From: a virus
Reading direction: 5' to 3' (one strand)
DNA length: 64,000 bases
IMG/VR virus record: IMGVR_UViG_3300037840_000227
Coordinates: 1 to 64,000 of that record
The translations under genes were made by a program, and so were the position numbers. This document shows positions 10,136 to 25,405 of the stretch, piece after piece. The notes below the pieces were generated by a model. It was given only the letters and a program-made list of their open reading frames with translations, had not been told where the DNA came from and made no database searches. The stretch's first letter is position 1, and each line of letters opens with the position of its first letter.

Positions 10136-10465
10136 ATGACCGAATATAATGGAGCGATCCCCGCTGGCGGCGCGATGGCGGTGTCTCCGCCAGGCGGCAA
10201 CGGCAGCCGCCGCCGGCTCAAGTATCAGAACAATGGGGTTTCCCTCATGCGGTTCTCGGCGACAACCGGCGTGCCGGCGAGCCTGACAGTTGGCCTCGCT
10301 GTGCCGGGGGGAAGCAACCAGGTCTACGAATGGCCGAGCCACATCGCCGCCGCCATCATTGGCGCAAGGGGCGCCTTGACGAGCCCGGACAATGGCGTGC
10401 CGACGGGACAGATTACGGTCTGGGGCCAGAATCCAGGCGATACCTGGTATGTCGAGGAGGAGTAA
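10136..10465 (+). CDS. Small structural-type protein; insertion target at its stop codon
   Basis: A 109-residue protein with no signal peptide, beta-rich and Gly/Pro-rich (GGSNQVYEWPSHIAAAIIGARG, shortened here as the core region), resembling small phage virion or head-completion proteins, but not recognised as a family. Its TAA stop lies inside the 8-bp target duplication (GTAATCCG) created by the downstream transposon-like element, so the insertion landed exactly at the end of this gene and left the protein intact. Confidence 0.6.
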   Translation: MTEYNGAIPAGGAMAVSPPGGNGSRRRLKYQNNGVSLMRFSATTGVPASLTVGLAVPGGSNQVYEWPSHIAAAIIGARGALTSPDNGVPTGQITVWGQNPGDTWYVEEE

Positions 10466-10469
10466 TCCG
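10462..10469. repeat. Left copy of 8-bp target-site duplication
   Basis: GTAATCCG directly abuts the left inverted terminus of the inserted element; the identical octamer abuts the right terminus at 12326-12333. Duplications of 8-9 bp are typical of IS1-family transposition. A perfect copy argues for recent insertion. Confidence 0.88.
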
Positions 10470-10485
10470 GGTAGTGTCTCAGTTT
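10470..10485. repeat. Left terminal inverted repeat of the element
   Basis: GGTAGTGTCTCAGTTT; its exact reverse complement lies at 12310-12325. All 16 positions match. Confidence 0.9.
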
Positions 10486-10586
10486 CCGGAAGCGAACTTT
10501 ATGCTTAACAGCTGTCTCGAATTTAGGAGACAGCCTCCGAGTCGATATGCATACTAATTTGCCAGGGGAAAAATCACGGATTGATC

Positions 10587-10904
10587 GTGGCAAACGATCC
10601 CGGTCCACAAGGGCATAAAGACGGGGATGCGAAGCCCGTCCGACGCGTTGGCCCCTTTCCCCCGCCGAGGACGCTCCCTGCTTTCCCGAACGCGATAAAA
10701 GTCAAAGGCAAAACCCCGAGGCATAAGGGATCGAGCGGGATGCGCCCCCGTTGGAAGGAGCCTGACGGAACTATCTACGAATGGGATAGTCAACATGGAA
10801 CAGTCGAAAAATATGACGCAGACGGTAACCACTTAGGAGAGTTTGATCAGTTTAATGGGAAACAAACGGGACCTGCAATTTCTACGAGGAGTGTAGAACC
10901 ATGA
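10587..10904 (+). CDS. Colicin E3-type cytotoxic ribonuclease domain (free-standing)
   Basis: A 105-residue basic protein. The core IYEWDSQHGTVEKY is very close to the catalytic segment of the colicin E3 / cloacin DF13 RNase domain, which cuts 16S rRNA in the decoding site. Catalytic residues known in that family align: Asp67, His70, Glu74 and a C-terminal Arg101 (start at GTG 10587; an in-frame TTG lies at 10581). The preceding Lys/Arg-rich stretch and WKEPDGT also match the family. No receptor-binding or translocation domain is present, so the protein is either an intracellular toxin or the payload end of a lost larger toxin. It overlaps an acidic downstream gene, as toxin-immunity pairs do. 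Carried inside the mobile element. Confidence 0.82.
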   Translation: MANDPGPQGHKDGDAKPVRRVGPFPPPRTLPAFPNAIKVKGKTPRHKGSSGMRPRWKEPDGTIYEWDSQHGTVEKYDADGNHLGEFDQFNGKQTGPAISTRSVEP

Positions 10905-11146
10905 GCTACACACTTGCGCATCAATTAGTCGGGTATGATCCTGAAACTGAGCGTCTTGAGGTCCAATGGGAAATCCCCGAGAGTCTTATGGATAAGGTTC
11001 GAAGGCTGGTCGTAACAGACGAAGACGATCCCGATATTGTCGACGCTTATCCTGTCGACCCCACCGTGGCTCGCGATATCCTAGGAATGCTTCACAGCAA
11101 CGAACGTCGGCAACTCGACTATTTCCTGGAAGGCTTTCAGCGCTAA
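10901..11146 (+). CDS. Putative immunity protein for the E3-type ribonuclease
   Basis: An 81-residue, strongly acidic protein (for example TDEDDPDIVDAY) whose ATG overlaps the toxin stop (ATGA). Translational coupling, small size and opposite charge to the toxin are what is expected of an immunity protein. The GYDPETERLEVQWEIPES opening resembles small proteins annotated next to E3-type toxins (a DUF7683-like pattern, from memory). Direct binding to the toxin is inferred. Confidence 0.65.
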   Translation: MSYTLAHQLVGYDPETERLEVQWEIPESLMDKVRRLVVTDEDDPDIVDAYPVDPTVARDILGMLHSNERRQLDYFLEGFQR

Positions 11147-11149
11147 CTG

Positions 11150-11491
11150 CTATCGAATGCGCTTCGCTTTTTTAGCCTCGCGATAGCGTTCGTCGCGCGC
11201 ATCGAGAAGCGCGACAATATCATCCATGCCCCAAAGCCGATCAGAGACGCCAGCGGCCATCGCGGGCGTGACCCTCAGGCTCTTATGGATGCGGATGAAG
11301 TTGTAATAGAGGAAGTACAGCGCCAGAGAATGACAATGGTTCTCAATCTTCTTTGAGAATGCGTTCGTCAATCGGGTGAAGCGCCGCATGCCCATGCGCA
11401 TATTCAAGTTCTGACGCTCAACATGGCTTGTCGAGATATGCGCTTCATCGGGGTTGCCTTCGATTGGCGTCCTGATCGCGCCCGTGCCCAC
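11150..11491 (-). pseudogene. Truncated IS1-type DDE transposase (C-terminal part)
   Basis: About 113 minus-strand residues match the C-terminal catalytic region of a widespread proteobacterial IS1-like transposase: [19 protein letters not shown], then the [18 protein letters not shown] motif and [16 protein letters not shown]-like end. Full-length relatives have about 200-230 residues with a zinc/HTH N-terminus and the first Asp of the DDE triad; all of that is missing here. The break falls at the nested palindrome at 11483-11572. Non-functional alone. Confidence 0.8.
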
Positions 11492-11572
11492 CGGCGCTCA
11501 GGGCCATAACAGGAAGGCCCGTATCTGACCTTTGCCGTGGGGGCGGGACAGATACGGGCCTTGGTGGGCACG
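11483..11572. repeat. Nested palindrome at the transposase break point
   Basis: Inner arms AAGGCCCGTATCTG (11514-11527) and CAGATACGGGCCTT (11549-11562) are perfect 14-bp inverted repeats. Outer arms CGTGCCCACC (11483-11492) and GGTGGGCACG (11563-11572) are a second perfect 10-bp pair, adjacent to the inner arm only on the right. It may be a transcription terminator, a recombination hotspot, or the trace of a smaller insertion that truncated the transposase and brought in the adjacent tRNA. Confidence 0.75.
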
Positions 11573-11580
11573 CCTTCTTA

Positions 11581-11693
11581 GGAGGCGTGGCCGAGCGGTT
11601 TAAGGCAGCGGTCTTTAAAACCGCCGGAGCTTGCCCTTCCGAAAGGAAGGGATAGACGGGCTTCCGTAGGTTCGAATCCTACCGCCTCCGCCA
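11581..11693 (+). tRNA. Class II tRNA with anticodon TTA (reads UAA; Ser-like, possible ochre suppressor)
   Basis: Seven-bp acceptor stem GGAGGCG/CGCCTCC, G73 and encoded CCA; D-arm 11590-11606; anticodon stem GCGGT/ACCGC with 7-base loop CTTTAAA, putting T33 before anticodon TTA (11615-11617); T-arm GTAGG-TTCGAAT-CCTAC. Overall sequence resembles bacterial tRNA-Ser(TGA) with G35 changed to T. The variable region is 41 nt (11625-11665), about twice the usual class II length, and contains CCCTTCC-GAAA-GGAAGGG. A UUA anticodon pairs with the ochre stop codon. Misreading of the loop register is unlikely because the stem fits perfectly, but charging and function are unproven. Confidence 0.75.
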
Positions 11694-11738
11694 GTTTCCC
11701 GGCGCATCTTTTATTATAAAGGGTGCGCCGTTCTTTTT

Positions 11739-11972
11739 CTATTTCTTATTCCAACGGCTTGCGGCGGCTTGCTTCGCTATCTCCATCCTTCTTTCCGGCG
11801 TCATCTTCGCGGCCCTCGCGGCGCCGCCTTTCTTGCCGAGCGCCTTAGCGCCGGGGTCTTTCCCGTCATCCGGCGACGTGTCGTCAACCTCTCCCGTCGC
11901 GATCTTGGCGATTAGGACGGCGCGGGCGTTTATGTCAGCGGGGCGGCGCTCGCCTTTAGGACCTCGGGGCAT
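11739..11972 (-). CDS. Small basic protein, passenger of the element
   Basis: 77 residues: MPRGPKGERRPAD start, then KKGGAARAAKMTPERRMEIAK and an A-A-A-S-R-W end. Small proteins with this PRGPKG…GGxARAxxMTPERR pattern are common in Rhizobiales genomes and probably bind nucleic acid. It starts in a TAATG overlap with the upstream minus-strand gene, so the two form an operon inside the element. Function unknown. Confidence 0.65.
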   Translation of the reverse strand: MPRGPKGERRPADINARAVLIAKIATGEVDDTSPDDGKDPGAKALGKKGGAARAAKMTPERRMEIAKQAAASRWNKK

Positions 11973-12259
11973 TAGATTTTCCGCTTTCCCGGTTTTCTGA
12001 CTGAACTCGGCTCAAGAGAGCCGTTCCGCATGGCCTCCTCGAATGCGCGTCTAAATTTCTCAGAATCTCTGCGGACCGGCAGTGGCTTGCCGTCCGGGCC
12101 TAGCTTGACGATTTCCGTTTGATCGCGACGACCGCAGAGATTTGGCCCGCGCGGACCGCGGCGCCACTCATCACCGATTCGATCGCCGATGGTTTCCGAC
12201 CTAGCGTCCGGCCATCGAAGTTTCCCTGACACATCCGCCTCATGCTTTCCGCCAAGCAT
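11972..12259 (-). CDS. Unknown small protein, passenger of the element
   Basis: A 95-residue, Arg/Lys-rich protein (EIVKLGPDGKPLPVRRDSEKF… and a basic C-terminus). It is the first gene of the minus-strand pair beginning near the right end of the element. Not recognised; a DNA-binding or regulatory role is a guess from composition. Confidence 0.5.
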   Translation of the reverse strand: MLGGKHEADVSGKLRWPDARSETIGDRIGDEWRRGPRGPNLCGRRDQTEIVKLGPDGKPLPVRRDSEKFRRAFEEAMRNGSLEPSSVRKPGKRKI

Positions 12260-12309
12260 ATAGGCGACGAGCGCCGGAGGCGAGAGCTAGTCAAGCTGGA
12301 TTATTTTTC

Positions 12310-12325
12310 AAACTGAGACACTACC
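12310..12325. repeat. Right terminal inverted repeat of the element
   Basis: AAACTGAGACACTACC, exact reverse complement of the left terminus at 10470-10485. Confidence 0.9.
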
Positions 12326-12333
12326 GTAATCCG
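12326..12333. repeat. Right copy of 8-bp target-site duplication
   Basis: GTAATCCG immediately outside the right terminus, identical to the left copy at 10462-10469. Confidence 0.88.
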
Positions 12334-12944: not shown

Positions 12945-15674
12945 ATGGCCGACGAGCAGCAGACGCTTGCTGATAGTGTGCCCCAGTGGGGCAGCATGTC
13001 CCTTGATGAGATAGCCAAGCATCTCGCTGGGCTCCCCAAACAAAATCGTGATGACATTGTCGAGGCGGCTTACCACGCCACGGCGGAACGTAAATGGATT
13101 CCTAACACCGGCGCTCAACTCGACGCATACTTCAATAAAGCCGATGTATTACTTTATGGCGGCGCGGCAGGTGGCGGTAAACTGCTTGATATCAATGAGT
13201 TACTGCCAACACCGCATGGTTGGGTGCGGATGGGCGATGTTGCGATCGGCGACATTCTCTTTGATCAGGCCGGGTCCCGGTGCAGCGTTACGGCAGTTTC
13301 TCCTGTCAAATCAGCGAAGACATATCGCCTAACCTTTGACGATGGAACGGAAGTAACCTGCTGCGCCGATCATCTCTGGCTTACCTACGACGCTAAAGAG
13401 CTTGGCCAGCTTCTCAAGAAAACCGATGAGTGGCGGAGTCGGCGGCGCGCGGCTCGGCCATCAAGAGCCAAGGGCATCAAAAGCGAAAAATTTCGACTGT
13501 CAATCTCGGCGAGAAACTCCACGTTAGCGAAATCGACGCCAGCTCCAACTGGCTCGATCAGGACTACTCAGCAGATCGTCGATACCCTCATCGTCAAGAG
13601 AGGCCGTCGCAATCACGCCGTTCCGGTTGCTGGTGCGATAGAGCTGCCGGCTGCCGACCTTTCTTTAGATCCATATATCTTAGGCGCATGGCTCGGCGAC
13701 GGGACGGCCATAAGTGGTGGGTTTACTGGCGTGGATGACTTCATTTGGCGGGAGATAGAACGCGCGGGATTTGTCGTTACTCACGCAGCCGGAAAAGCTA
13801 GCGCTCATCACATCAGGGGACTCGTCCCATTCCTTCGTCGTCTTGGCGTCTTGGGCAATAAGCATGTTCCCCCGGCTTATCTCCGAGGTTCTATGGCGCA
13901 GCGCTTGGCCCTTCTACAGGGCCTCATGGATACGGATGGCCACGCCGCACTTGATGGTGGGTGTGAGTTCGACAACACAAATCTTAGTCTCGCTGAGGCC
14001 GTTTATGAGTTGGTGGCTAGCCTCGGCATCAAGGCAACAATCAATGAAGGTGTGGCGACGCTTTATGGCCGTGCTCTTGGGCCGAGATGGCGCGTTAAGT
14101 TCACGACCGATGTCCCGGTTTTCCGGCTTCCGCGTAAACGTGCGAGGCAAAAAGCAAAGGTGCGTCAAGTCGCAAGATTTCGTTACATCCGCGAGGCGAT
14201 CGAGGTGGACCCGGTTCCCATGCGGTGCATCTCTGTAGACAGTCCGACTAGGCTATATTTATGTACGAAATCATTTATCCCGACTCATAACAGCCAGTTA
14301 ATACTTGGGCTTGCTTTCTGCGAACACAAGCGGTCGCTTATCATGCGACAGGAATTCTCTGCATTAACAACGCTCACACAGCAGGCGATCAAGATAAACG
14401 GGACGAAGCAAGGGTATAATGGGTCAAACCCTCCTAGTATAAAGACGTCTGATGGAAGATTTATTCAGTTTAGTGGAGAACAGATTGAAAAGTTCCAAGG
14501 TGCAGATTTCGATTTAAAGGGGTTCGATGAGGCCGTACATCTCTCCGAGGAAACCATTCGTCTTAACCTCGGGTGGCTCCGTACTGCGGAGATCGGGCAG
14601 CGCACGCGAGCCGTTTTGGCCACAAATCCGCCGACGGACTCCAGGGGCGACTGGATAATTCCTATGTTCGGCCCGTGGCTTGACATCAACCATCCAAATC
14701 CGGCCCAGCCAGGCGAATTGCGATGGGTTGCCGTCGACCCGGACGGCCGGGATTTTTGGACCGAGGGGCCAGAACCATACCTATTTCCTGGCGAACGAAT
14801 TCCGGTCATCCCGAAATCAAGAACGTTCATCCCAGCCAAGCTCTCTGAGAATCCTTATTACGTACAGAGCGGCTATCAGAAAGAACTCGACGCTCTTCCA
14901 GAGCCGTATCGCTCTGCCTACCGCGACGGCAACTTCATGGCCGCGAGGAGCGATCAGGATAATCAAGTCATCCCCACTCAGTGGGTGCTCGAGGCACAAA
15001 AGCGCTGGAAGAAATCCGGGGGCGCCGAATTGATGATGAGCGCTATGGGCATTGACGTCGGGCAGGGCGGGATCGATCGCATAGTAATCGCTCGCCGGCA
15101 TGGGGAATGGTATGCGCCACTGATTGTTGTCTCCGGCAAGGATGCGCCGGACGGTTCTAAACAGGCGGCGCTGATTGTCGAAAATCGTCGCGATGGCTGT
15201 AGTGTGATTGTTGATGTCGGCGGCGGCTATGGCGGTGACTGTGTCGGGCGCCTCCAAGATAACAAGATCACGCCGGTTCGCTTCAACGGCTCTAGCGGCT
15301 CAACCAGTCGGGCCAAGGATGGCTCCGGCCGCCTCTTCGAGAATCGGCGCGCTGAGGCATGGTGGCGCTTCCGCGAGGCGCTTAATCCTGATCAGGCCGG
15401 CGGCTCAATCATTGCCCTCCCAGATGATTCAGAACTGCGGTCCGAATTGACCGCACCAACCTTCAAAAGCGAAATGCTGAAGATCCAAATCGAGGATAAG
15501 AAGGACATTAAAAAGAGGTTAGGCCATTCCCCGGACAAAGCCGACGCCGTGGTGATGGCCTGGGCGCCGGGCGAGACTGCGATTCGCCGCCAGCGCTATT
15601 CTGGCTTTGGCGGTCCAGTTGAAATGCCGTCGCGAACAAACTTGGGATATTCCGATATGAAGAAGAGGATTTGA
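12945..15674 (+). CDS. terL: Terminase large subunit, interrupted by an intein
   Basis: A 909-residue precursor; removing residues 80-449 leaves a 539-residue terminase. The Walker A motif GGAAGGGK/S is split by the intein exactly between Lys79 and Ser450. Walker B and the catalytic Glu appear as LKGF-D528-E529-A. The C-terminal RNase H-like nuclease shows Asp704 (GIDVGQGG), Asp757 (VIVDVGGG) and Asp867 (DKADAVVMAW). It packages DNA into proheads through the portal encoded downstream. Activity depends on intein splicing, because the ATP-binding loop is broken in the precursor. Start ATG 12945 follows the previous gene by 26 bp. Confidence 0.93.
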   Translation: MADEQQTLADSVPQWGSMSLDEIAKHLAGLPKQNRDDIVEAAYHATAERKWIPNTGAQLDAYFNKADVLLYGGAAGGGKLLDINELLPTPHGWVRMGDVAIGDILFDQAGSRCSVTAVSPVKSAKTYRLTFDDGTEVTCCADHLWLTYDAKELGQLLKKTDEWRSRRRAARPSRAKGIKSEKFRLSISARNSTLAKSTPAPTGSIRTTQQIVDTLIVKRGRRNHAVPVAGAIELPAADLSLDPYILGAWLGDGTAISGGFTGVDDFIWREIERAGFVVTHAAGKASAHHIRGLVPFLRRLGVLGNKHVPPAYLRGSMAQRLALLQGLMDTDGHAALDGGCEFDNTNLSLAEAVYELVASLGIKATINEGVATLYGRALGPRWRVKFTTDVPVFRLPRKRARQKAKVRQVARFRYIREAIEVDPVPMRCISVDSPTRLYLCTKSFIPTHNSQLILGLAFCEHKRSLIMRQEFSALTTLTQQAIKINGTKQGYNGSNPPSIKTSDGRFIQFSGEQIEKFQGADFDLKGFDEAVHLSEETIRLNLGWLRTAEIGQRTRAVLATNPPTDSRGDWIIPMFGPWLDINHPNPAQPGELRWVAVDPDGRDFWTEGPEPYLFPGERIPVIPKSRTFIPAKLSENPYYVQSGYQKELDALPEPYRSAYRDGNFMAARSDQDNQVIPTQWVLEAQKRWKKSGGAELMMSAMGIDVGQGGIDRIVIARRHGEWYAPLIVVSGKDAPDGSKQAALIVENRRDGCSVIVDVGGGYGGDCVGRLQDNKITPVRFNGSSGSTSRAKDGSGRLFENRRAEAWWRFREALNPDQAGGSIIALPDDSELRSELTAPTFKSEMLKIQIEDKKDIKKRLGHSPDKADAVVMAWAPGETAIRRQRYSGFGGPVEMPSRTNLGYSDMKKRI
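13182..14291 (+). other. Class 3 intein with LAGLIDADG endonuclease inside terL
   Basis: 370 residues (80-449 of the precursor). The first residue is Leu, not Cys or Ser, followed by LPTPHGWVRMGDVAIGD, a block A pattern. The class 3 signature Trp-Cys-Thr is present: block B W145 (GTEVTCCADHLW), block F C428 (MRCISVDSP) and block G T447 (FIPTHN), with Asn449 last and Ser450 as +1 residue. The two LAGLIDADG helices are YILGAWLGDG (Asp252) and LLQGLMDTDG (Asp329/Asp331), so the homing endonuclease looks active. Inteins favour such essential nucleotide-binding loops because imprecise loss is lethal to the phage. Confidence 0.9.
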
Positions 15675-20898: not shown

Positions 20899-20973
20899 GC
20901 CGCTTAAACTTTGATGGTGAAGCCCGGTCCTGTAAACCGGCGGAACGGTGTTCGAGTCACCGAAGCGGCCCCA
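20899..20973 (+). tRNA. tRNA-Thr (TGT)
   Basis: Acceptor GCCGCTT/AAGCGGC, C73, encoded CCA. Anticodon stem CCGGT/ACCGG with loop CCTGTAA: C replaces the near-universal T33. T-arm CGGTG-TTCGAGT-CACCG. First gene of the array. Confidence 0.75.
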
Positions 20974-20978
20974 TATTT

Positions 20979-21054
20979 GCTGCCTTAGCTCATCAGGTAG
21001 AGCGCCGCTCTCGTAAGGCGGAGGCGCCCGGATCATGGCCGGGAGGCAGCTCCA
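20979..21054 (+). tRNA. tRNA-Thr (CGT)
   Basis: Acceptor GCTGCCT/AGGCAGC, T73, CCA. Anticodon stem CCGCT/GGCGG, loop CTCGTAA. The T-loop is ATCATGG, unlike the usual TTCGAAT, closed by CCCGG/CCGGG. Confidence 0.75.
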
Positions 21055-21059
21055 GTTTC

Positions 21060-21133
21060 GCCCTTGTCCTTCAACGACAGGAGAGCGCTTTGGTATAGCG
21101 TCAATCGAGGTTTGATTCCTCGCAGGGGCACCA
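21060..21133 (+). tRNA. tRNA-Thr (GGT)
   Basis: Acceptor GCCCTTG/CAGGGGC, A73, CCA. Anticodon stem GCGCT/AGCGT, loop TTGGTAT. T-arm CGAGG-TTTGATT-CCTCG. Third threonine isoacceptor in a row. Confidence 0.72.
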
Positions 21134-21138
21134 TCTTT

Positions 21139-21212
21139 GGCGCTGTAGCCCAATTGGTAGAGGCATCTCGCTCAGACCGAGAAGGATCCGAGTTCGAATC
21201 TCGGCAGCGCTA
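21139..21212 (+). tRNA. tRNA with Leu anticodon CAG, class I shape
   Basis: Acceptor GGCGCTG/CAGCGCT with A73 but no encoded CCA (CGC follows). Anticodon stem TCTCG/CGAGA, loop CTCAGAC. Variable loop is 5 nt, whereas bacterial tRNA-Leu normally has a long variable arm. T-arm CCGAG-TTCGAAT-CTCGG. Confidence 0.75.
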
Positions 21213-21213
21213 C

Positions 21214-21290
21214 GCGGGTGTAGGCAAATCGGCAAAGCCGCCTGCCTCAAAATCAGGTGTTTCGAGATTCGAGTTCTCGCATCCGCACCA
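21214..21290 (+). tRNA. tRNA with Leu anticodon CAA, class I shape
   Basis: Acceptor GCGGGTG/CATCCGC, A73, CCA. Anticodon arm CCTGC-CTCAAAA-TCAGG (closing pair mismatched). Short variable loop TGTTT. T-arm CGAGA-TTCGAGT-TCTCG. Begins one base after the previous tRNA's position 73. Confidence 0.75.
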
Positions 21291-21295
21291 AATTC

Positions 21296-21369
21296 GGCCG
21301 CCTAGGCCAACGGTAGAGTCGGGAGATTTAAATCCTCCTTCAGTGCGCGTTCGAATCGCGCGGCGGCTA
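21296..21369 (+). tRNA. tRNA with Leu anticodon TAA, class I shape
   Basis: Acceptor GGCCGCC/GGCGGCT, A73, no encoded CCA. Anticodon arm GGAGA-TTTAAAT-CCTCC (A-C closing mismatch). Short variable loop. T-arm GCGCG-TTCGAAT-CGCGC. Confidence 0.7.
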
Positions 21370-21370
21370 C

Positions 21371-21445
21371 GGGCGGTTAGCTCAGAGGAAGAGCGGGGGT
21401 CCTACAAACCTCAGGTCGGGATTTCGAAATTCTCACCGCCTACCA
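21371..21445 (+). tRNA. tRNA-Val (TAC)
   Basis: Acceptor GGGCGGT/ACCGCCT, A73, CCA. Anticodon stem GGGGT/ACCTC with loop CCTACAA; again C at position 33. T-stem weak (GGGAT/TTCTC) with loop TTCGAAA. Confidence 0.72.
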
Positions 21446-21450
21446 TTCAC

Positions 21451-21524
21451 GGTCACGTAGCTCAGTGGCAGAGCCGGCGCTCGATAAGCGTCTGACGCGA
21501 GTTCGATTCTCGACGTGACTTCCA
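21451..21524 (+). tRNA. tRNA-Ile (GAT)
   Basis: Acceptor GGTCACG/CGTGACT, T73, CCA. Anticodon stem GGCGC/GCGTC, loop TCGATAA with C33. D-arm GCTC…GAGC. T-loop TTCGATT. Confidence 0.72.
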
Positions 21525-21571
21525 ATAAGGGAAGGTTCCAGCCATGTGCGAATATCTCAAACGGGTTCTCT

Positions 21572-21666
21572 GGACCCGTGACCGGAGTAGGCCGATCGGC
21601 CCTGACTTTTAATCAGGTGTGGACTTCGGTCCACCATCGCGAGTTCGAATCTCGCCGGGTTCTCCA
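21572..21666 (+). tRNA. Class II tRNA with Lys anticodon TTT
   Basis: Acceptor GGACCCG/CGGGTTC, T73, CCA. Three-bp D-stem with large loop as in Ser/Leu tRNAs. Anticodon stem CCTGA/TCAGG, loop CTTTTAA. Variable arm of about 21 nt with stem TGGAC-TTCG-GTCCA. Lysine tRNAs are normally class I, so identity is uncertain. The 21525-21571 spacer before it shows no gene. Confidence 0.72.
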
Positions 21667-21669
21667 CTT

Positions 21670-21755
21670 GGACCGGTAGTCAAGCGGCCAACGACAAGAG
21701 ACTCTTAATCTCTCGACGAAAGTCTTCGGGAGTTCGAATCTCCCCCGGTTCGCCA
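21670..21755 (+). tRNA. Class II tRNA with Lys anticodon CTT
   Basis: Acceptor GGACCGG/CCGGTTC, G73, CCA. D-stem GTC/GAC. Anticodon stem AGAGA/TCTCT, loop CTCTTAA. Variable arm of about 14 nt with GAC-GAAA-GTC. T-arm GGGAG-TTCGAAT-CTCCC. Same unusual class II shape as its neighbour. Confidence 0.74.
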
Positions 21756-21759
21756 ACAC

Positions 21760-21835
21760 GGCGTCGTACCCCAAAGGCAGAGGGAGAGCGTTGAGAACGC
21801 TTTCAGTGGACGTTCAAGTCGTCCCGACGCCACCA
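21760..21835 (+). tRNA. tRNA with Leu anticodon GAG, class I shape
   Basis: Acceptor GGCGTCG/CGACGCC, A73, CCA. Anticodon stem GAGCG/CGCTT, loop TTGAGAA. Variable loop TCAGT. T-arm GGACG-TTCAAGT-CGTCC. Fourth Leu-anticodon tRNA without a long variable arm. Confidence 0.75.
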
Positions 21836-21839
21836 GTCG

Positions 21840-21914
21840 GGTCCGTTACGCATCCGGTGAAGCGATCCGCCTGTCGAGCGGATGAGGCGGGATCGTCCCC
21901 CGCACGGACCGCCA
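21840..21914 (+). tRNA. tRNA-Asp (GTC)
   Basis: Acceptor GGTCCGT/ACGGACC, G73 (normal for Asp), CCA. Anticodon stem TCCGC/GCGGA, loop CTGTCGA. T-arm GCGGG-ATCGTCC-CCCGC, atypical T-loop. Confidence 0.82.
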
Positions 21915-21915
21915 T

Positions 21916-21993
21916 CAGGGAGTAGCTTAGCCAGGCGAAAGCGCATGCCTCGGGCGCATGAGACCGGGAGTTCAAATCTCCCCTCCCTGACCA
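21916..21993 (+). tRNA. tRNA-Pro (CGG)
   Basis: Acceptor CAGGGAG/CTCCCTG with the C1-G72 pair typical of tRNA-Pro, A73, CCA. Anticodon stem CATGC/GCATG, loop CTCGGGC. T-arm GGGAG-TTCAAAT-CTCCC. Confidence 0.85.
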
Positions 21994-22020
21994 GTTAGTC
22001 GCAGCAGCAGGAGAAGCAGA

Positions 22021-22257
22021 ATGTTAACGGTAAAGCATGTGGATATAGGCGGTCACGAAAGCATAACGCTGGCGGAGACCGTCATTTTCGATCCCGCGGT
22101 GGGAAAGGACAATGAGTACCCCGCCGGACAAGTTGTCGCCTTTGGCGTGCCAGCGCCGATATCGGACGGCTGTAACCGCTACTCTAGCGGGCGAGTCTTT
22201 GTCATGAATGATTTTGGCAAGACCGTCGCTGTCTATCGGCTACTCGAAACTCGTTAG
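22021..22257 (+). CDS. Small hypothetical protein within the tRNA array
   Basis: 78 residues with AGGAG upstream. Beta-rich (VKHVDIGGHESITLAETV; GRVFVMNDFGKTVAVYRL). Not recognised; similar short phage proteins occur among early and tRNA-linked genes. Its TAG stop overlaps the first bases of the next tRNA (Met), showing tight packing. Confidence 0.62.
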   Translation: MLTVKHVDIGGHESITLAETVIFDPAVGKDNEYPAGQVVAFGVPAPISDGCNRYSSGRVFVMNDFGKTVAVYRLLETR

Positions 22258-22334
22258 CCGCGAGCCCGAAAAGTGGAGGGTACCCGCTCATAACGGGTCG
22301 ATTAGCGGGCTCACCCAGCCCGCCGCGGCCACCA
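22256..22334 (+). tRNA. tRNA-Met (CAT), initiator-like end
   Basis: Acceptor AGCCGCG/CGCGGCC leaves an unpaired A1-C72, similar in principle to the mismatched first pair of initiator tRNAs. A73, CCA. D-arm CCC…GGG. Anticodon stem ACCCG/CGGGT, loop CTCATAA. The T-arm is aberrant (GGGCT-CACCC-AGCCC). Whether it acts in initiation or elongation is open. Confidence 0.7.
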
Positions 22335-22346
22335 GTGAGACGTCCC

Positions 22347-22697
22347 ATGCGCACTATTATCAAGTACGTCGAGCGTGCCGATGATCTGCCGCTCCTCCAA
22401 TTCTATATTCACGGCGCTCCCCATCGTCGGATGCACCATCAGACGATTGAGGCCTATCGGAAGGAGCTAGTCGAAGCGGCGCAGAAGGAAAAGATCGTCA
22501 TCCCGATCAAGCATCCGGTTGCGGTATCGGTCCTCTTCATTGATCCTACTTCCATTGACCTCGATAATCTCTTGACTGCCTTGTGGAGAGCAATGGATGG
22601 CAAGGATCATAGGAAGCCGACGGTACTTGCCGACGATGGCTTAATCCACTGGATCGAGAGGACCGGCAAGTACTACCCGCAAGACAAGAAAAAATAG
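22347..22697 (+). CDS. RusA-like Holliday junction resolvase
   Basis: 116 residues from ATG 22347 (a GTG at 22335 is the alternative). The C-terminal half carries IDLDNLLTALWRAMDG and VLADDGLIHWIERTGKYY, matching the RusA family core, in which Asp residues of D-x-D-N and A-D-D bind metal. Role: cutting branched DNA during replication, recombination or packaging. It sits between tRNA-Met and tRNA-Arg; the Arg tRNA begins at the base after its stop. Confidence 0.82.
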   Translation: MRTIIKYVERADDLPLLQFYIHGAPHRRMHHQTIEAYRKELVEAAQKEKIVIPIKHPVAVSVLFIDPTSIDLDNLLTALWRAMDGKDHRKPTVLADDGLIHWIERTGKYYPQDKKK

Positions 22698-22773
22698 GTT
22701 CTCCTAGCTCAATGGATAGAGCGCCGCCCTCCGAAGGCGGGAGATGGCAGTTCAAGTCTGCCGGAGAACGCCA
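22698..22773 (+). tRNA. tRNA-Arg (CCG)
   Basis: Acceptor GTTCTCC/GGAGAAC, G73, CCA. D-arm GCTC…GAGC. Anticodon stem CCGCC/GGCGG, loop CTCCGAA. T-arm GGCAG-TTCAAGT-CTGCC. Starts directly after the RusA-like stop codon. Confidence 0.88.
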
Positions 22774-23011
22774 ACATGGATGACTAACCGGCCAGGGGCC
22801 GGCGCCGTTTTGAACACGGAAGGACGGGAAACCGGATCGATACGGCGCCCGCAACATTTCGCAGAGCCGGGAAACGCGTGACAGTTAACCCTGTTCGCCA
22901 TGAGCCCATCAGGACATGGTGCTGGGAAGGCCGTCGTCGGCCGCTGTCAGACCCAGAGACCCGTGTGCTGAGGTACGCGCTGTAATGCACGGCGCTCTGC
23001 GAAACCATTTC
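22774..23011 (+). other. Unresolved structured RNA-like interval
   Basis: No coding frame or clean cloverleaf was found, yet the region is full of strong pairs: GGCGCCGT/ACGGCGCC (22801-22808 with 22842-22849), a CCGT-TTTGAAC-ACGG hairpin resembling an anticodon arm (22805-22819), and CGCAGAGC/GCTCTGCG (22860-22867 with 22994-23001) closing a 142-nt segment. It may hold degenerate tRNAs (one Ser TGA-like) or a separate structured RNA. Confidence 0.4.
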
Positions 23012-23103
23012 GGGAGACGCAAATAAGACGGGCCGGTGCCCGTGCCTGACTGTAAATCAGGTCCCTATGCGGCGAGGTGTTCAACTCATCCCGTCTCCCA
23101 CCA
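23012..23103 (+). tRNA. tRNA-Tyr (GTA)
   Basis: Acceptor GGGAGAC/GTCTCCC, A73, CCA. Anticodon stem CCTGA/TCAGG, loop CTGTAAA. Long variable arm, normal for bacterial tRNA-Tyr. T-stem is weak. Confidence 0.82.
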
Positions 23104-23107
23104 TTCT

Positions 23108-23181
23108 GCGGGTATAGCTCGAAGGTCGAGCAACAGCATGCCATGCTGAAGGCGGGGCTTCGATTGCCCCTACCCGCTCCA
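23108..23181 (+). tRNA. tRNA-Gly (GCC)
   Basis: Acceptor GCGGGTA/TACCCGC, T73 and CCA, typical of tRNA-Gly. D-arm GCTC…GAGC. Anticodon arm CAGC-ATGCCAT-GCTG region with GCC. T-arm GGGGC-TTCGATT-GCCCC. The following 120 bp (23182-23301) hold only a short open frame without a clear start. Confidence 0.82.
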
Positions 23182-23301
23182 CAAGTACAACAAGGCTCGC
23201 CGCCTCAACAAGCACTTGGCCCGGTGGCCTCGTGATCTTTGCGCCAAGGAAGCCCTTGCGCGTTGCTATCTCGTCATCCGGCCTCAAGCCGGGTGACTTC
23301 T

Positions 23302-23377
23302 GCGCGATAAGTTGATCTGGTGATAACGCTGCGCTGAAGACGCAGAGAGCGAGGTTCGAAACCTCGATCGCGCACCA
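23302..23377 (+). tRNA. tRNA-Phe (GAA)
   Basis: Acceptor GCGCGAT/ATCGCGC, A73, CCA. Anticodon stem CTGCG/CGCAG, loop CTGAAGA. T-arm CGAGG-TTCGAAA-CCTCG. Confidence 0.85.
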
Positions 23378-23383
23378 TCAATC

Positions 23384-23454
23384 GGGGGACGTGCAGGGCA
23401 CAGCGAACTCTTGCAAAGTTCGCGAGCCCGGATCGTTACCGGGGTCCTCCACCA
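23384..23454 (+). tRNA. tRNA-Ala (TGC), reduced D-arm
   Basis: Acceptor GGGGGAC/GTCCTCC, A73, CCA. Anticodon stem GAACT/AGTTC, loop CTTGCAA. T-arm CCCGG-ATCGTTA-CCGGG. Only 71 nt; the D region (GTGCAGGGCACAGC) makes at most a 2-bp stem. Confidence 0.72.
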
Positions 23455-23457
23455 ATT

Positions 23458-23536
23458 CCTAGTCAAGCCAAGCAAGGTGCAGGGCCGAAGCTGTTAACTT
23501 CTGTTTAGCGAGGTTCGATTCCTCGGACTAGGGCCA
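23458..23536 (+). tRNA. tRNA-Asn (GTT)
   Basis: Acceptor CCTAGTC/GACTAGG, G73, CCA. D-arm GCC…GGC. Anticodon arm GAAG-CTGTTAA-CTTC. T-arm CGAGG-TTCGATT-CCTCG. Confidence 0.82.
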
Positions 23537-23579
23537 GCTTCTCCTTGCGGATTGTTCGAGTCTTGGCTAAGGTAGCCAA

Positions 23580-24116
23580 ATGGCTATGGACTTATCCTCT
23601 GCTGCCGATGTGAATGATAATGGCCGTCTCCGGCGCAAATGGCTCGACAAAAGGAAGAACGCAAAGAAGAATGGAAACGCCTTTCTCCTCTCATTCGAGG
23701 AATACGCAGACCTTCTTCGGGAAGCTGGAATTGTTTCGTCTACAGTCGGGCCTAGTGGCTATCATCTAGCCCGGTATGGCGATAAAGGACCCTATGCGAT
23801 TGGAAATTGCCGGTTTGTCCCTTACATCGTCAATGCTCGAGAAAGGGTTGTTGATGGTGGCGCCGTATCGCGGGGCCTCATTGCCTATTATGCGACGCAT
23901 CCGGGTTCTTTCACCGGTATATCTCATAAAGATAGTACCAAAGCCCTTATCGGCGCAGCGAATTGTGTCAGTCAAGCGGGCGCTAGAAATTCCCAGTTCG
24001 GACGCGCATGGATCACCGATGGTAAAGTCAATAAAAAGATTGATACATCGGAACTATCGTTTTACCTCGATGCTGGATGGCGTCGGGGCCGTACGCTTCC
24101 ATCGTCTATTGGATAG
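23580..24116 (+). CDS. Homing endonuclease-like protein overlapping a tRNA gene
   Basis: 178 residues. YHLARYGDKGPYAIGNCRFVPY with the following N-A-R-E is the type of motif found in phage HNH-like homing nucleases, and the C-terminal AWITDGKVNKKID…AGWRRGRTLP resembles the WITNG…GWxxGR DNA-binding module (NUMOD-like) of such proteins. The last 22 bp of the gene also encode the 5' part of tRNA-Glu(CTC). It is the only nuclease gene inside the tRNA array and may target tRNA genes. Confidence 0.75.
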   Translation: MAMDLSSAADVNDNGRLRRKWLDKRKNAKKNGNAFLLSFEEYADLLREAGIVSSTVGPSGYHLARYGDKGPYAIGNCRFVPYIVNARERVVDGGAVSRGLIAYYATHPGSFTGISHKDSTKALIGAANCVSQAGARNSQFGRAWITDGKVNKKIDTSELSFYLDAGWRRGRTLPSSIG

Positions 24117-24169
24117 GACACCGCTCTCTCACAGCGGAAATCTCGGGTCAGTACCGAGTGGAAGCGCCA
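24095..24169 (+). tRNA. tRNA-Glu (CTC)
   Basis: Acceptor GCTTCCA/TGGAAGC, G73 (normal for Glu), CCA. D-arm GTC…GAC. Anticodon stem CCGCT/AGCGG, loop CTCTCAC. T-arm CTCGG-GTCAGTA-CCGAG. Its first 22 bases lie within the preceding endonuclease gene. Confidence 0.8.
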
Positions 24170-24170
24170 T

Positions 24171-24253
24171 CCTCGCTTAGCCGGCCCTGGCTACGAACCA
24201 GTGGAACCGTAATGGAGCTGTAAATGGGAGTTCGACCCTCCCAGCGAGGTCCA
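24171..24253 (+). tRNA. Degenerate tRNA, probably Arg (ACG)
   Basis: Clean acceptor CCTCGCT/AGCGAGG with T73 and CCA, and T-arm GGGAG-TTCGACC-CTCCC. The best anticodon arm is CTGG-CTACGAA-CCAG (ACG), but this leaves only six bases for the D region and a 20-plus-base variable region. It is either a D-armless or rearranged tRNA, or a decayed gene. Confidence 0.5.
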
Positions 24254-24259
24254 TGTCAA

Positions 24260-24334
24260 CTGCGCGTAGCTCAATGGTAGAGCTCCGGCCCTGGAAGCCG
24301 GAGGGTGCAGGTTCGAGTCCTGCTGCGCAGACCA
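24260..24334 (+). tRNA. tRNA-Pro (TGG)
   Basis: Acceptor CTGCGCG/TGCGCAG with C1-G72 as in tRNA-Pro, A73, CCA. Anticodon stem CCGGC/GCCGG with loop CCTGGAA, giving TGG and another C33. T-arm GCAGG-TTCGAGT-CCTGC. Confidence 0.75.
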
Positions 24335-24348
24335 GTCCTCGTCCTCGC

Positions 24349-24425
24349 TGGGGGGTGGCGCAATTAGGCAGCGCAGCGCACTTTGAATGCGAAGGTTGGT
24401 GGTTCGATCCCACCCCCCCCAACCA
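24349..24425 (+). tRNA. tRNA-Gln (TTG)
   Basis: Acceptor TGGGGGG/CCCCCCA with the T1-A72 pair typical of tRNA-Gln, A73, CCA. Anticodon arm CGCA-CTTTGAA-TGCG. T-arm GGTGG-TTCGATC-CCACC. Confidence 0.82.
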
Positions 24426-24434
24426 CGTATATGA

Positions 24435-24508
24435 TCCCGGCTAGTTCAGCGATAGAACGCCGTGCTCTGGACACGGAGACTGAGGTTTGAATCCTCGGCT
24501 GGGAGCCA
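24435..24508 (+). tRNA. tRNA-Gln (CTG)
   Basis: Acceptor TCCCGGC/GCTGGGA (T1-A72), G73, CCA. Anticodon stem CCGTG/CACGG, loop CTCTGGA. T-loop TTTGAAT. Confidence 0.85.
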
Positions 24509-24513
24509 GCTAC

Positions 24514-24588
24514 GGCGGCATGCCGAGAGCGTCTATCGGCCCCTCTGCAAAAGGGAGTAGCCGGGTTAAACTCCCGGTGCCGCCTCCA
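24514..24588 (+). tRNA. tRNA-Cys (GCA)
   Basis: Acceptor GGCGGCA/TGCCGCC, T73 (normal for Cys), CCA. D-stem CCGA/TCGG. Anticodon arm CCCT-CTGCAAA-AGGG. T-arm CCGGG-TTAAACT-CCCGG. Confidence 0.83.
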
Positions 24589-24592
24589 CTTC

Positions 24593-24667
24593 GGTCGCAT
24601 CAGCCAACAGGACAGGCCGGCGCCTTCTAAGCGCTGAATCGAAGTTCGAGCCTTCGTGCGATCTCCA
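24593..24667 (+). tRNA. tRNA-Arg (TCT)
   Basis: Acceptor GGTCGCA/TGCGATC, T73, CCA. Anticodon arm GGCGC-CTTCTAA-GCGCT. T-arm CGAAG-TTCGAGC-CTTCG. The next 95 bp (24668-24762) contain two strong hairpins (GCGCACCGT/ACGGTGCGC; GATCGTC/GACGATC) but no acceptable cloverleaf. Confidence 0.8.
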
Positions 24668-24762
24668 CTACTTCCGCGCACCGTAGGGCATGAGAGCCGT
24701 GGACACGGTGCGCTCTAAGAGCGCCTGATCGTCGTGCTCGAAGAAAGGACGATCGCCACTTC

Positions 24763-24839
24763 GGTCCAGAGGCGCTATTGGATGGCGCGCCCGTTTCCTA
24801 AACGGGAGGATGCGAGTTCGAGTCTCGCCTGGATCACCA
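24763..24839 (+). tRNA. tRNA-Arg (CCT)
   Basis: Acceptor GGTCCAG/CTGGATC, A73, CCA. D-arm GCGC…GCGC. Anticodon stem CCCGT/ACGGG, loop TTCCTAA. T-arm GCGAG-TTCGAGT-CTCGC. Confidence 0.87.
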
Positions 24840-24842
24840 TTT

Positions 24843-24932
24843 GGAGATGACAAGCCGGGGGGATCCGGCGGCGGGTTGCTAACCCGAACGGGCCCGCAAG
24901 GGCTTGGGGATCGTATCCCCGTGTCTCCGCCA
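24843..24932 (+). tRNA. tRNA-Ser (GCT)
   Basis: Acceptor GGAGATG/TGTCTCC, G73 (Ser identity), CCA. Anticodon arm CGGG-TTGCTAA-CCCG. Long variable arm, normal for tRNA-Ser. T-loop ATCGTAT. Confidence 0.8.
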
Positions 24933-24936
24933 TCTC

Positions 24937-25011
24937 GCGGGCTTGGGTCATTGGTTGATCGTCAGGCTTCCAACCTGTTCCAAGGGAGTTCGATTCTCCC
25001 AGCTCGCTCCA
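24937..25011 (+). tRNA. tRNA-Gly (TCC)
   Basis: Acceptor GCGGGCT/AGCTCGC, T73 and CCA as in tRNA-Gly. Anticodon loop CTTCCAA in stem TCAGG/CCTGT. T-arm GGGAG-TTCGATT-CTCCC. Confidence 0.85.
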
Positions 25012-25012
25012 T

Positions 25013-25087
25013 CCCCCCTTCGACTAACGATCAAGTCAACGCCCTTTCACGGCGTTAACGCGGGGTGAGCACCCGCAGGGGGGTCCA
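25013..25087 (+). tRNA. tRNA-Glu (TTC)
   Basis: Acceptor CCCCCCT/AGGGGGG, T73, CCA. D-arm GAC…GTC. Anticodon stem ACGCC/GGCGT, loop CTTTCAC. T-arm has a non-standard loop (GTGAGCA). Confidence 0.72.
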
Positions 25088-25110
25088 AACTATCTTTGGG
25101 AGAGTGACGA

Positions 25111-25290
25111 ATGAACCTCTTTTGGCACCCAACTGGGCCTTCCCTCAGATACGAGAGGGGGGTTCTCTACATCTCTGACCTTAATCCAGAGATTCATACG
25201 AAGTGGCGTATGAGTCGATCGGAGATGTTTTGGCTTGGTATAAAATCACTTCTTTCGGCGATTCGTCCGGCGACGGCCGCGGTCTCATAA
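25111..25290 (+). CDS. Small hypothetical protein in the tRNA array
   Basis: 59 residues from ATG 25111, with GGGAGAG upstream. MNLFWHPTGPSLRYERGVLYISD is followed by KWRMSRSEMFWLGIKSLL. Trp-rich, with no membrane segment and no known domain. Short proteins with a P-x-L-R-Y…W-x-M-S-R pattern occur in many tailed phages. Ends TAA 38 bp before tRNA-His. Confidence 0.65.
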   Translation: MNLFWHPTGPSLRYERGVLYISDLNPEIHTKWRMSRSEMFWLGIKSLLSAIRPATAAVS

Positions 25291-25328
25291 GCCGCGCAGG
25301 CGCGATCGACACGCGCATTCGCCTCCAT

Positions 25329-25405
25329 GCAAGCGATGCTCGACGGCAATGAGCGGCGCGACTGTGAATCGCGAGGAGCCCGTCCGACTCGGGCCGCTTG
25401 TACCA
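25329..25405 (+). tRNA. tRNA-His (GTG)
   Basis: Acceptor GCAAGCG/CGCTTGT, A73, CCA; the first G could also act as the extra G-1 of tRNA-His. D-arm GCTC…GAGC. Anticodon stem CGCGA/TCGCG, loop CTGTGAA. T-arm GCCCG-TCCGACT-CGGGC. Confidence 0.78.

What the first reader, a model, noticed from the sequence alone, without database searches (positions are those of the whole stretch)
10462..12333. Recent transposon-like insertion carrying a toxin-immunity pair and a tRNA into a phage genome
Seen directly: 16-bp perfect inverted termini and an 8-bp duplicated target enclose 1,856 bp. The load is an E3-type RNase, an acidic coupled partner, a UUA-anticodon tRNA and two small genes, with only a fragment of transposase. 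It sits exactly at a stop codon between two virion genes. An rRNase acts on translation and a suppressor-type tRNA acts on stop codons, so the pairing may not be random. Such a cargo unit in a phage is, as far as I know, undescribed.
Basis: partly seen in the sequence, partly recalled or inferred. Interest (0 to 1): 0.88.

Follow-up and report, generated by a model that had tools for sequence, protein, structure and literature searches.

The report
IS1-type transposon carrying suppressor tRNA
A broken jumping gene that needs a relative's enzyme to move has landed in a phage genome carrying a ribosome-cutting toxin with its antidote and a transfer RNA altered to read a stop codon; it belongs to a widespread transposon family that repeatedly carries defence/toxin genes and transfer RNAs with unexpected codon readers.

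Summary
16-nt perfect inverted ends and an 8-bp target duplication bound 1,856 bp. A second assembly is identical, and the nearest relative found lacks the insert. It is a non-autonomous member of a divergent IS1-like transposon family (ends GGTAGTG(TC/GG)TCAGTTTGAA, 8-bp duplication). I found more than 200 sites in viral contigs and complete copies on alphaproteobacterial plasmids. Intact relatives encode a ~290-aa transposase plus a small basic protein, the window's '77-aa gene', so that gene is family core and not cargo. Typical cargo is toxin-antitoxin or anti-phage genes (RosmerTA, Abi, methylase, SocA-Panacea).

The window's cargo is an E3-type 16S rRNase and a DUF7683 partner; a Rhizobium E3-tipped toxin also has a DUF7683 protein next to it, so an immunity role is likely. 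The tRNA is a Ser-type body with anticodon UUA (an ochre suppressor), an encoded CCA and a terminator. A second, autonomous element carries a Leu-type UUA tRNA in the same place, and seven further complete elements carry tRNAs, most with anticodons foreign to their bodies. The tRNA-transposon link therefore looks non-random. The tRNA-toxin link is not supported. What the tRNA does is unknown; misdecoding is inferred, not shown.

The parts
10462..10469 (.). Target-site duplication, left copy (GTAATCCG); holds the TAA of the upstream gene
   Evidence: sequence
10470..10485 (+). Left terminal inverted repeat GGTAGTGTCTCAGTTT
   Evidence: same ends on Hoeflea and Mesorhizobium plasmid elements with 8-bp TSDs
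10581..10904 (+). 107-aa E3-type ribosomal RNase (catalytic domain only, TTG start); D, H and E of EWDSQHG..E retained
   Evidence: PF09000 6.7e-28; colicin E3 chains 2.3e-10 with alignment
10901..11146 (+). 81-aa DUF7683 partner, ATGA overlap with toxin; probable immunity protein/antitoxin
   Evidence: PF24731 2.3e-9; a DUF7683 protein also follows the E3 tip of a Rhizobium hemagglutinin-type toxin
11150..11491 (-). C-terminal third of an IS1-like DDE transposase; N-terminal HTH and first acidic residues absent
   Evidence: alignment with 15 family transposases, mostly full length; 101 of ~290 aa covered
11514..11562 (+). Strong hairpin upstream of the tRNA, role unknown; found only in this phage among fetched loci
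   Evidence: (z -4.1)
11581..11693 (+). Ser-type tRNA, anticodon UUA (11615-11617), G73, encoded CCA, ~40-nt variable arm: predicted UAA suppressor
   Evidence: Rfam 57.9 bits; best annotated phage matches tRNA-Ser; cloverleaf and variable-arm fold
11700..11730 (+). Intrinsic-terminator-like hairpin just after the tRNA (14 pairs, T-rich tail); scan count no higher than in shuffles
11739..11972 (-). 77-aa small basic protein, conserved core gene of the transposon family (a relative on a Mesorhizobium plasmid is annotated 'histone H1')
11972..12259 (-). 95-aa ORF, unknown; only found in this element among fetched loci
12238..12325 (.). Right subterminal region, 72-79% identical over ~85-96 nt to the ends of several other family members
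12310..12325 (-). Right terminal inverted repeat (continues as TTTGAA like the family)
12326..12333 (.). Target-site duplication, right copy (GTAATCCG)
   Evidence: sequence

Best explanation
A non-autonomous transposon of a divergent IS1-like family inserted between two genes of a circularly assembled ~98.7-kb phage genome. Shown: matching ends, TSD, family membership by ends, transposase remnant and core 77-aa gene. Inferred: it moved with transposase supplied in trans by an intact relative, since its own transposase keeps only the C-terminal third. Its cargo is a translation-directed set. [quoted passage not shown] (2) A Ser-type tRNA with anticodon UUA is predicted to be charged by SerRS, which does not need the anticodon, and to insert serine at some UAA codons. 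The tRNA is an established component of some elements of this family rather than a chance passenger; what benefit it gives is unresolved.
For: Ends and TSD. Complete relatives with IS1-type transposase and exact 8-bp TSDs: Hoeflea plasmid 4,224 bp, Mesorhizobium plasmid 3,370 bp. 119+ and 94 viral-contig stretches with the two end variants; 32 + 16 pairs of ends with matching 8-bp duplications in the two sets, a few the same insertion. Transposase: best model IS1. Second assembly identical. Nearest relative (G154) has no such ends and 236 nt in place of the insert. Cargo of sister elements: RmrA 3e-191 next to RmrT 1e-97, methylases, AAA HEC-04, SocA-Panacea, Abi_2. DUF7683 next to an E3 tip elsewhere. 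Second UUA tRNA in an intact element, Leu body, between core gene and transposase. Encoded CCA and terminator-like hairpin after the tRNA.
Against: The left end matches the family for only 16 nt (no TGAA extension), so how the toxin pair came to lie inside the left end is unclear. The exact pre-insertion site was not found in a close relative; the best relative has a different upstream gene. Toxicity, immunity and suppression are inferred from sequence. The variable arm of the tRNA is about twice the usual length, which could impair charging. The terminator-like hit is within the number expected by chance in the scan. The phage ends 23 of 95 larger predicted genes in UAA, so strong suppression would harm it, and no conserved phage gene has an in-frame UAA to suppress.
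Confidence: 0.78

Rival explanations
1. The tRNA and toxin pair are unrelated random passengers caught during aberrant transposition, and the tRNA is a decaying pseudogene whose anticodon drifted.
For: The transposase is truncated; some in-element tRNAs are imperfect (L058 lacks U33, L296 body unclear); the phage's own 28-tRNA array also has odd tRNAs (Leu anticodons on short-arm bodies, Lys anticodons on long-arm bodies).
Against: The window tRNA keeps perfect acceptor, anticodon and T stems, U33, A37 and CCA. A second element has a UUA tRNA with a different (Leu) body at the same place. Ser-like UUA tRNAs of this pattern occur in only 4 stretches of 84,980 species genomes.
Confidence: 0.3
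2. The tRNA is a decoy or replacement that evades or absorbs host anticodon nucleases, and its altered anticodon is a by-product.
For: Phage tRNAs are proposed to carry anticodon-loop changes that evade host tRNases (PMC10264068); the transposon family is rich in defence and TA cargo.
Against: No known anticodon nuclease targets a UUA tRNA as far as I know; the change is in the anticodon itself and changes decoding.
Confidence: 0.15
3. The suppressor is needed to read through a UAA in a phage or element gene (recoding).
For: A UAA-reading tRNA is present; phages with recoded stop codons are known.
Against: UAA is an ordinary stop in this phage (23/95 larger genes) and several UAA-ended genes are followed by a Shine-Dalgarno-like site and a new start; 433 alignments to relatives show no internal UAA in sense frame.
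Confidence: 0.04
4. Assembly chimera.
For: Metagenomic source.
Against: TSD, family ends, and a second assembly with no mismatch across the element and its flanks.
Confidence: 0.01

Closest known systems
IS1 family insertion sequences and 'tIS' (IS with passenger genes)
   Same: Inverted ends starting GG, 8-bp TSD, transposase best matched by IS1 models; passenger genes are a recognised feature of some IS families (PMC7986276)
   Different: Transposase ~290 aa in one ORF and below NCBI's IS1 cut-off; conserved extra basic protein; cargo of TA/defence genes and tRNAs; frequent in phage contigs
Colicin E3/pyocin S6-type rRNases and polymorphic-toxin tips
   Same: PF09000 catalytic domain with conserved D/H/E; partner gene directly downstream
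   Different: Stand-alone 107-aa domain without receptor or translocation domains; partner is DUF7683, not cloacin immunity (PF03513)
RosmerTA and other TA defence modules
   Same: Two-gene toxin modules carried by the same transposon family
   Different: Different protein families; defence not tested
Ochre/missense suppressor tRNAs (laboratory sup alleles; natural suppressor tRNAs of recoded phages)
   Same: Body whose synthetase ignores the anticodon (Ser, Leu) with a changed anticodon
   Different: Reads UAA in a phage that uses UAA as stop; carried by a transposon; very long variable arm

Membership tests
IS1 family transposon (tIS, non-autonomous) | Terminal inverted repeats and 8-9 bp TSD | tested here: met
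IS1 family transposon (tIS, non-autonomous) | IS1-type DDE transposase in relatives with the same ends | tested here: met
   PF03400 above cut-off in three full-length relatives; NCBIfam IS1 is best but below its cut-off, so a divergent branch
IS1 family transposon (tIS, non-autonomous) | Own complete transposase (autonomy; not required of a non-autonomous member) | tested here: not met
   only the C-terminal ~101 of ~290 aa; hence filed as non-autonomous
Colicin E3-type rRNase | PF09000 domain with catalytic D, H, E | tested here: met
[quoted passage not shown]
   needs biochemistry
Bacteriocin | Receptor-binding/translocation domains | tested here: not met
   107-aa ORF holds only the cytotoxic domain
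Immunity protein of an E3-type toxin | Overlapping or adjacent gene, same pairing elsewhere | tested here: met
   ATGA overlap; Rhizobium E3 tip followed by DUF7683
Immunity protein of an E3-type toxin | Binds and neutralises the toxin | not testable with these tools
   single-sequence model too poor to use (pLDDT 53)
Ochre suppressor tRNA | tRNA cloverleaf with UUA anticodon, U33, A37 | tested here: met
Ochre suppressor tRNA | Body recognised by an anticodon-blind synthetase (SerRS: long arm, G73) | tested here: inconclusive
   Ser-like by phage tRNA matches; E. coli body score puts Tyr 37.6 and Ser 35.2 close; G73 favours Ser
Ochre suppressor tRNA | Suppresses UAA in vivo | not testable with these tools
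   needs a reporter assay

The most novel reading that the evidence does not exclude
This IS1-like transposon family disperses misdecoding tRNAs (nonsense and missense suppressors) as functional cargo among phages and plasmids: bodies of Ser, Leu and Arg tRNAs given foreign anticodons that keep synthetase recognition (UUA, CAA, UGG, and Arg bodies with GCU, ACU, CCC that all keep C35), perhaps as translation-directed weapons, addiction factors or tools against defence systems.
Probability: 0.25. Interest if true: 0.92.

Novelty: new variant of a known kind. Interest (0 to 1): 0.62.

Why it matters
It links three things not, to my knowledge, described together: IS-type transposons that live in phages, a cargo of toxin-antitoxin and anti-phage modules, and tRNAs whose anticodons do not fit their bodies. 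If the tRNAs are functional, mobile elements would be spreading natural nonsense/missense suppressors, giving a direct, cheap test of why mobile genomes carry strange tRNAs.

Tried and rejected
Recoding of UAA in the phage: rejected for conserved genes. A functional toxin-tRNA pair: eight other records tested, including six with tRNA-bearing elements, lack PF09000. Stop codon as target preference: TSDs vary freely. First tRNA pattern scan had a spacing error and found nothing; repeated correctly. DUF7683 in 148 genomes of one phylum: no hit, uninformative. Rfam mir-600 and BaMV_CRE hits in the insert: below gathering score, chance. Literature searches found no description of this family or of tRNAs as its cargo; a paper I remember on natural suppressor tRNAs with unusual cloverleaves is not held.

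Full report
Observation. The inverted ends (10470-10485, 12310-12325), the 8-bp duplication GTAATCCG and the listed contents are all present. The ends occur nowhere else in the 98,782-bp record. Another record (G001, 52,148 bp) matches this record at 100% through the region; its other match spans the record's ends, with a 127-nt overlap, so the genome is circular or circularly permuted, about 98.65 kb. The insertion leaves the upstream reading frame and its TAA intact, because the TAA lies in the duplicated target.

Surroundings. The closest relative found (L141 = G154, terminase 69% identical) has the downstream 173-aa gene at 56% identity and 236 nt in place of the insert, and no family ends within 2 mismatches. 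The upstream neighbour differs, so this is an empty locus, not an exact empty site. The next gene downstream is a terminase large subunit carrying a LAGLIDADG-type intein region.

What the element is. The transposase remnant matches elements annotated 'IS1 family transposase' on plasmids of Hoeflea, Mesorhizobium and others. Their ends are the same or GGTAGTGGGTCAGTTTGAA, with exact 8-bp duplications in Hoeflea (4,224 bp) and Mesorhizobium loti (3,370 bp). Full-length transposases are ~290 aa; IS1 is the best model, above the Pfam cut-off and below NCBI's. The window keeps only the C-terminal third, with a fully conserved Glu that is probably the last catalytic one. The window's 77-aa ORF recurs in most elements, usually at the end opposite the transposase: it is a family core protein of unknown role. 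Many are small and lack transposase, as expected for elements moved in trans.

Family cargo. Besides transposase and the core gene, elements carry RosmerTA (RmrA E=3e-191, RmrT E=1e-97), an Abi_2 protein, N6/N4 DNA methylases with Mrr-like parts, an AAA protein (HEC-04), SocA-Panacea, NYN and P63C proteins. The window's E3-type RNase fits this TA/defence class. Its catalytic D, H and E align with colicin E3. Its partner is DUF7683. A Rhizobium hemagglutinin-type toxin with an E3 tip is followed within a few nucleotides by a DUF7683 protein (E=1.8e-7), which supports an immunity role. Most other plasmid matches to the domain lie in large colicin-type proteins; here the domain stands alone.

The tRNA. 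Anticodon UUA (11615-11617) in a regular loop, stems intact, G73 and CCA encoded, a ~40-nt variable arm, and a terminator-like hairpin right after it. The anticodon differs from that of tRNA-Ser(UGA) by one base. SerRS does not read the anticodon (established knowledge), so charging with serine is plausible. Ser-like UUA tRNAs matching a fixed pattern were found in 4 stretches of the 84,980-species genome set and 2 viral contigs, one of them this phage; these are lower bounds because the pattern is narrow.

The tRNA belongs to the transposon. In L033, an intact 1,323-bp element (TSD AATCTCCC, full transposase), a UUA tRNA with a Leu body and A73 lies between the core gene (truncated there) and the transposase, as in the window. 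Other complete elements with tRNAs: L246 (Leu body, UGG), L271 (Ser body, CAA), L260 (Arg body, GCU), L106 (Arg body, ACU), L070 (Arg body by phage matches, CCC), L296 (GCU, body unclear), L250 (a 200-bp element holding only a tRNA, GUC, possibly normal). L260, L271 and L296 have both ends but no exact in-register duplication. Long-arm/short-arm class disagrees with the anticodon in 6 of 9 in-element tRNAs and in 4 of 29 tRNAs outside elements in the same loci (Fisher p=0.005). Limits: small numbers, E. coli references, mismatches also in 6 of 28 tRNAs of this phage's own array, and a comparison chosen after seeing the data. So the pattern is a lead, not a result.

Mechanism. Shown: ends, duplication, family, contents. 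Inferred: movement in trans; toxin/immunity action; UAA suppression. Not explained: the benefit of the tRNA.

Novelty. Passenger-carrying IS elements are known (PMC7986276), E3-type toxins are known, suppressor tRNAs are known. The combination, and tRNAs with foreign anticodons as recurrent transposon cargo in phages, I did not find described, though the library is open-access only.

Noticed in passing
window 20899-25405: Array of 28 tRNA genes; four Leu-anticodon tRNAs have short-arm bodies and two Lys-anticodon tRNAs have long-arm bodies.
   Followed up: partly
window 12945-15674: Terminase large subunit interrupted by a probable LAGLIDADG intein; the relative L141 lacks it.
   Followed up: no
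L110 290-390: Leu-type tRNA with UGG (Pro) anticodon next to a transposase-like ORF that looks IS1595-type by eye; only one family end found in the record.
   Followed up: partly
L322 3694-4212: Cluster of long-arm tRNAs with AGA, CAU and UUC anticodons downstream of one transposon end.
   Followed up: partly
L009 3334-5185: RosmerTA defence pair carried by an intact IS1-like transposon on a Hoeflea plasmid.
   Followed up: yes
window 11514-11562: Strong hairpin upstream of the tRNA (z -4.1), not found in any other fetched locus apart from copies of this phage.
   Followed up: partly
L220-L224: Rare natural UUA-anticodon tRNAs in Planctomycetaceae, Acidobacteria, a gut MAG, a deltaproteobacterium and a 377-kb phage.
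   Followed up: partly
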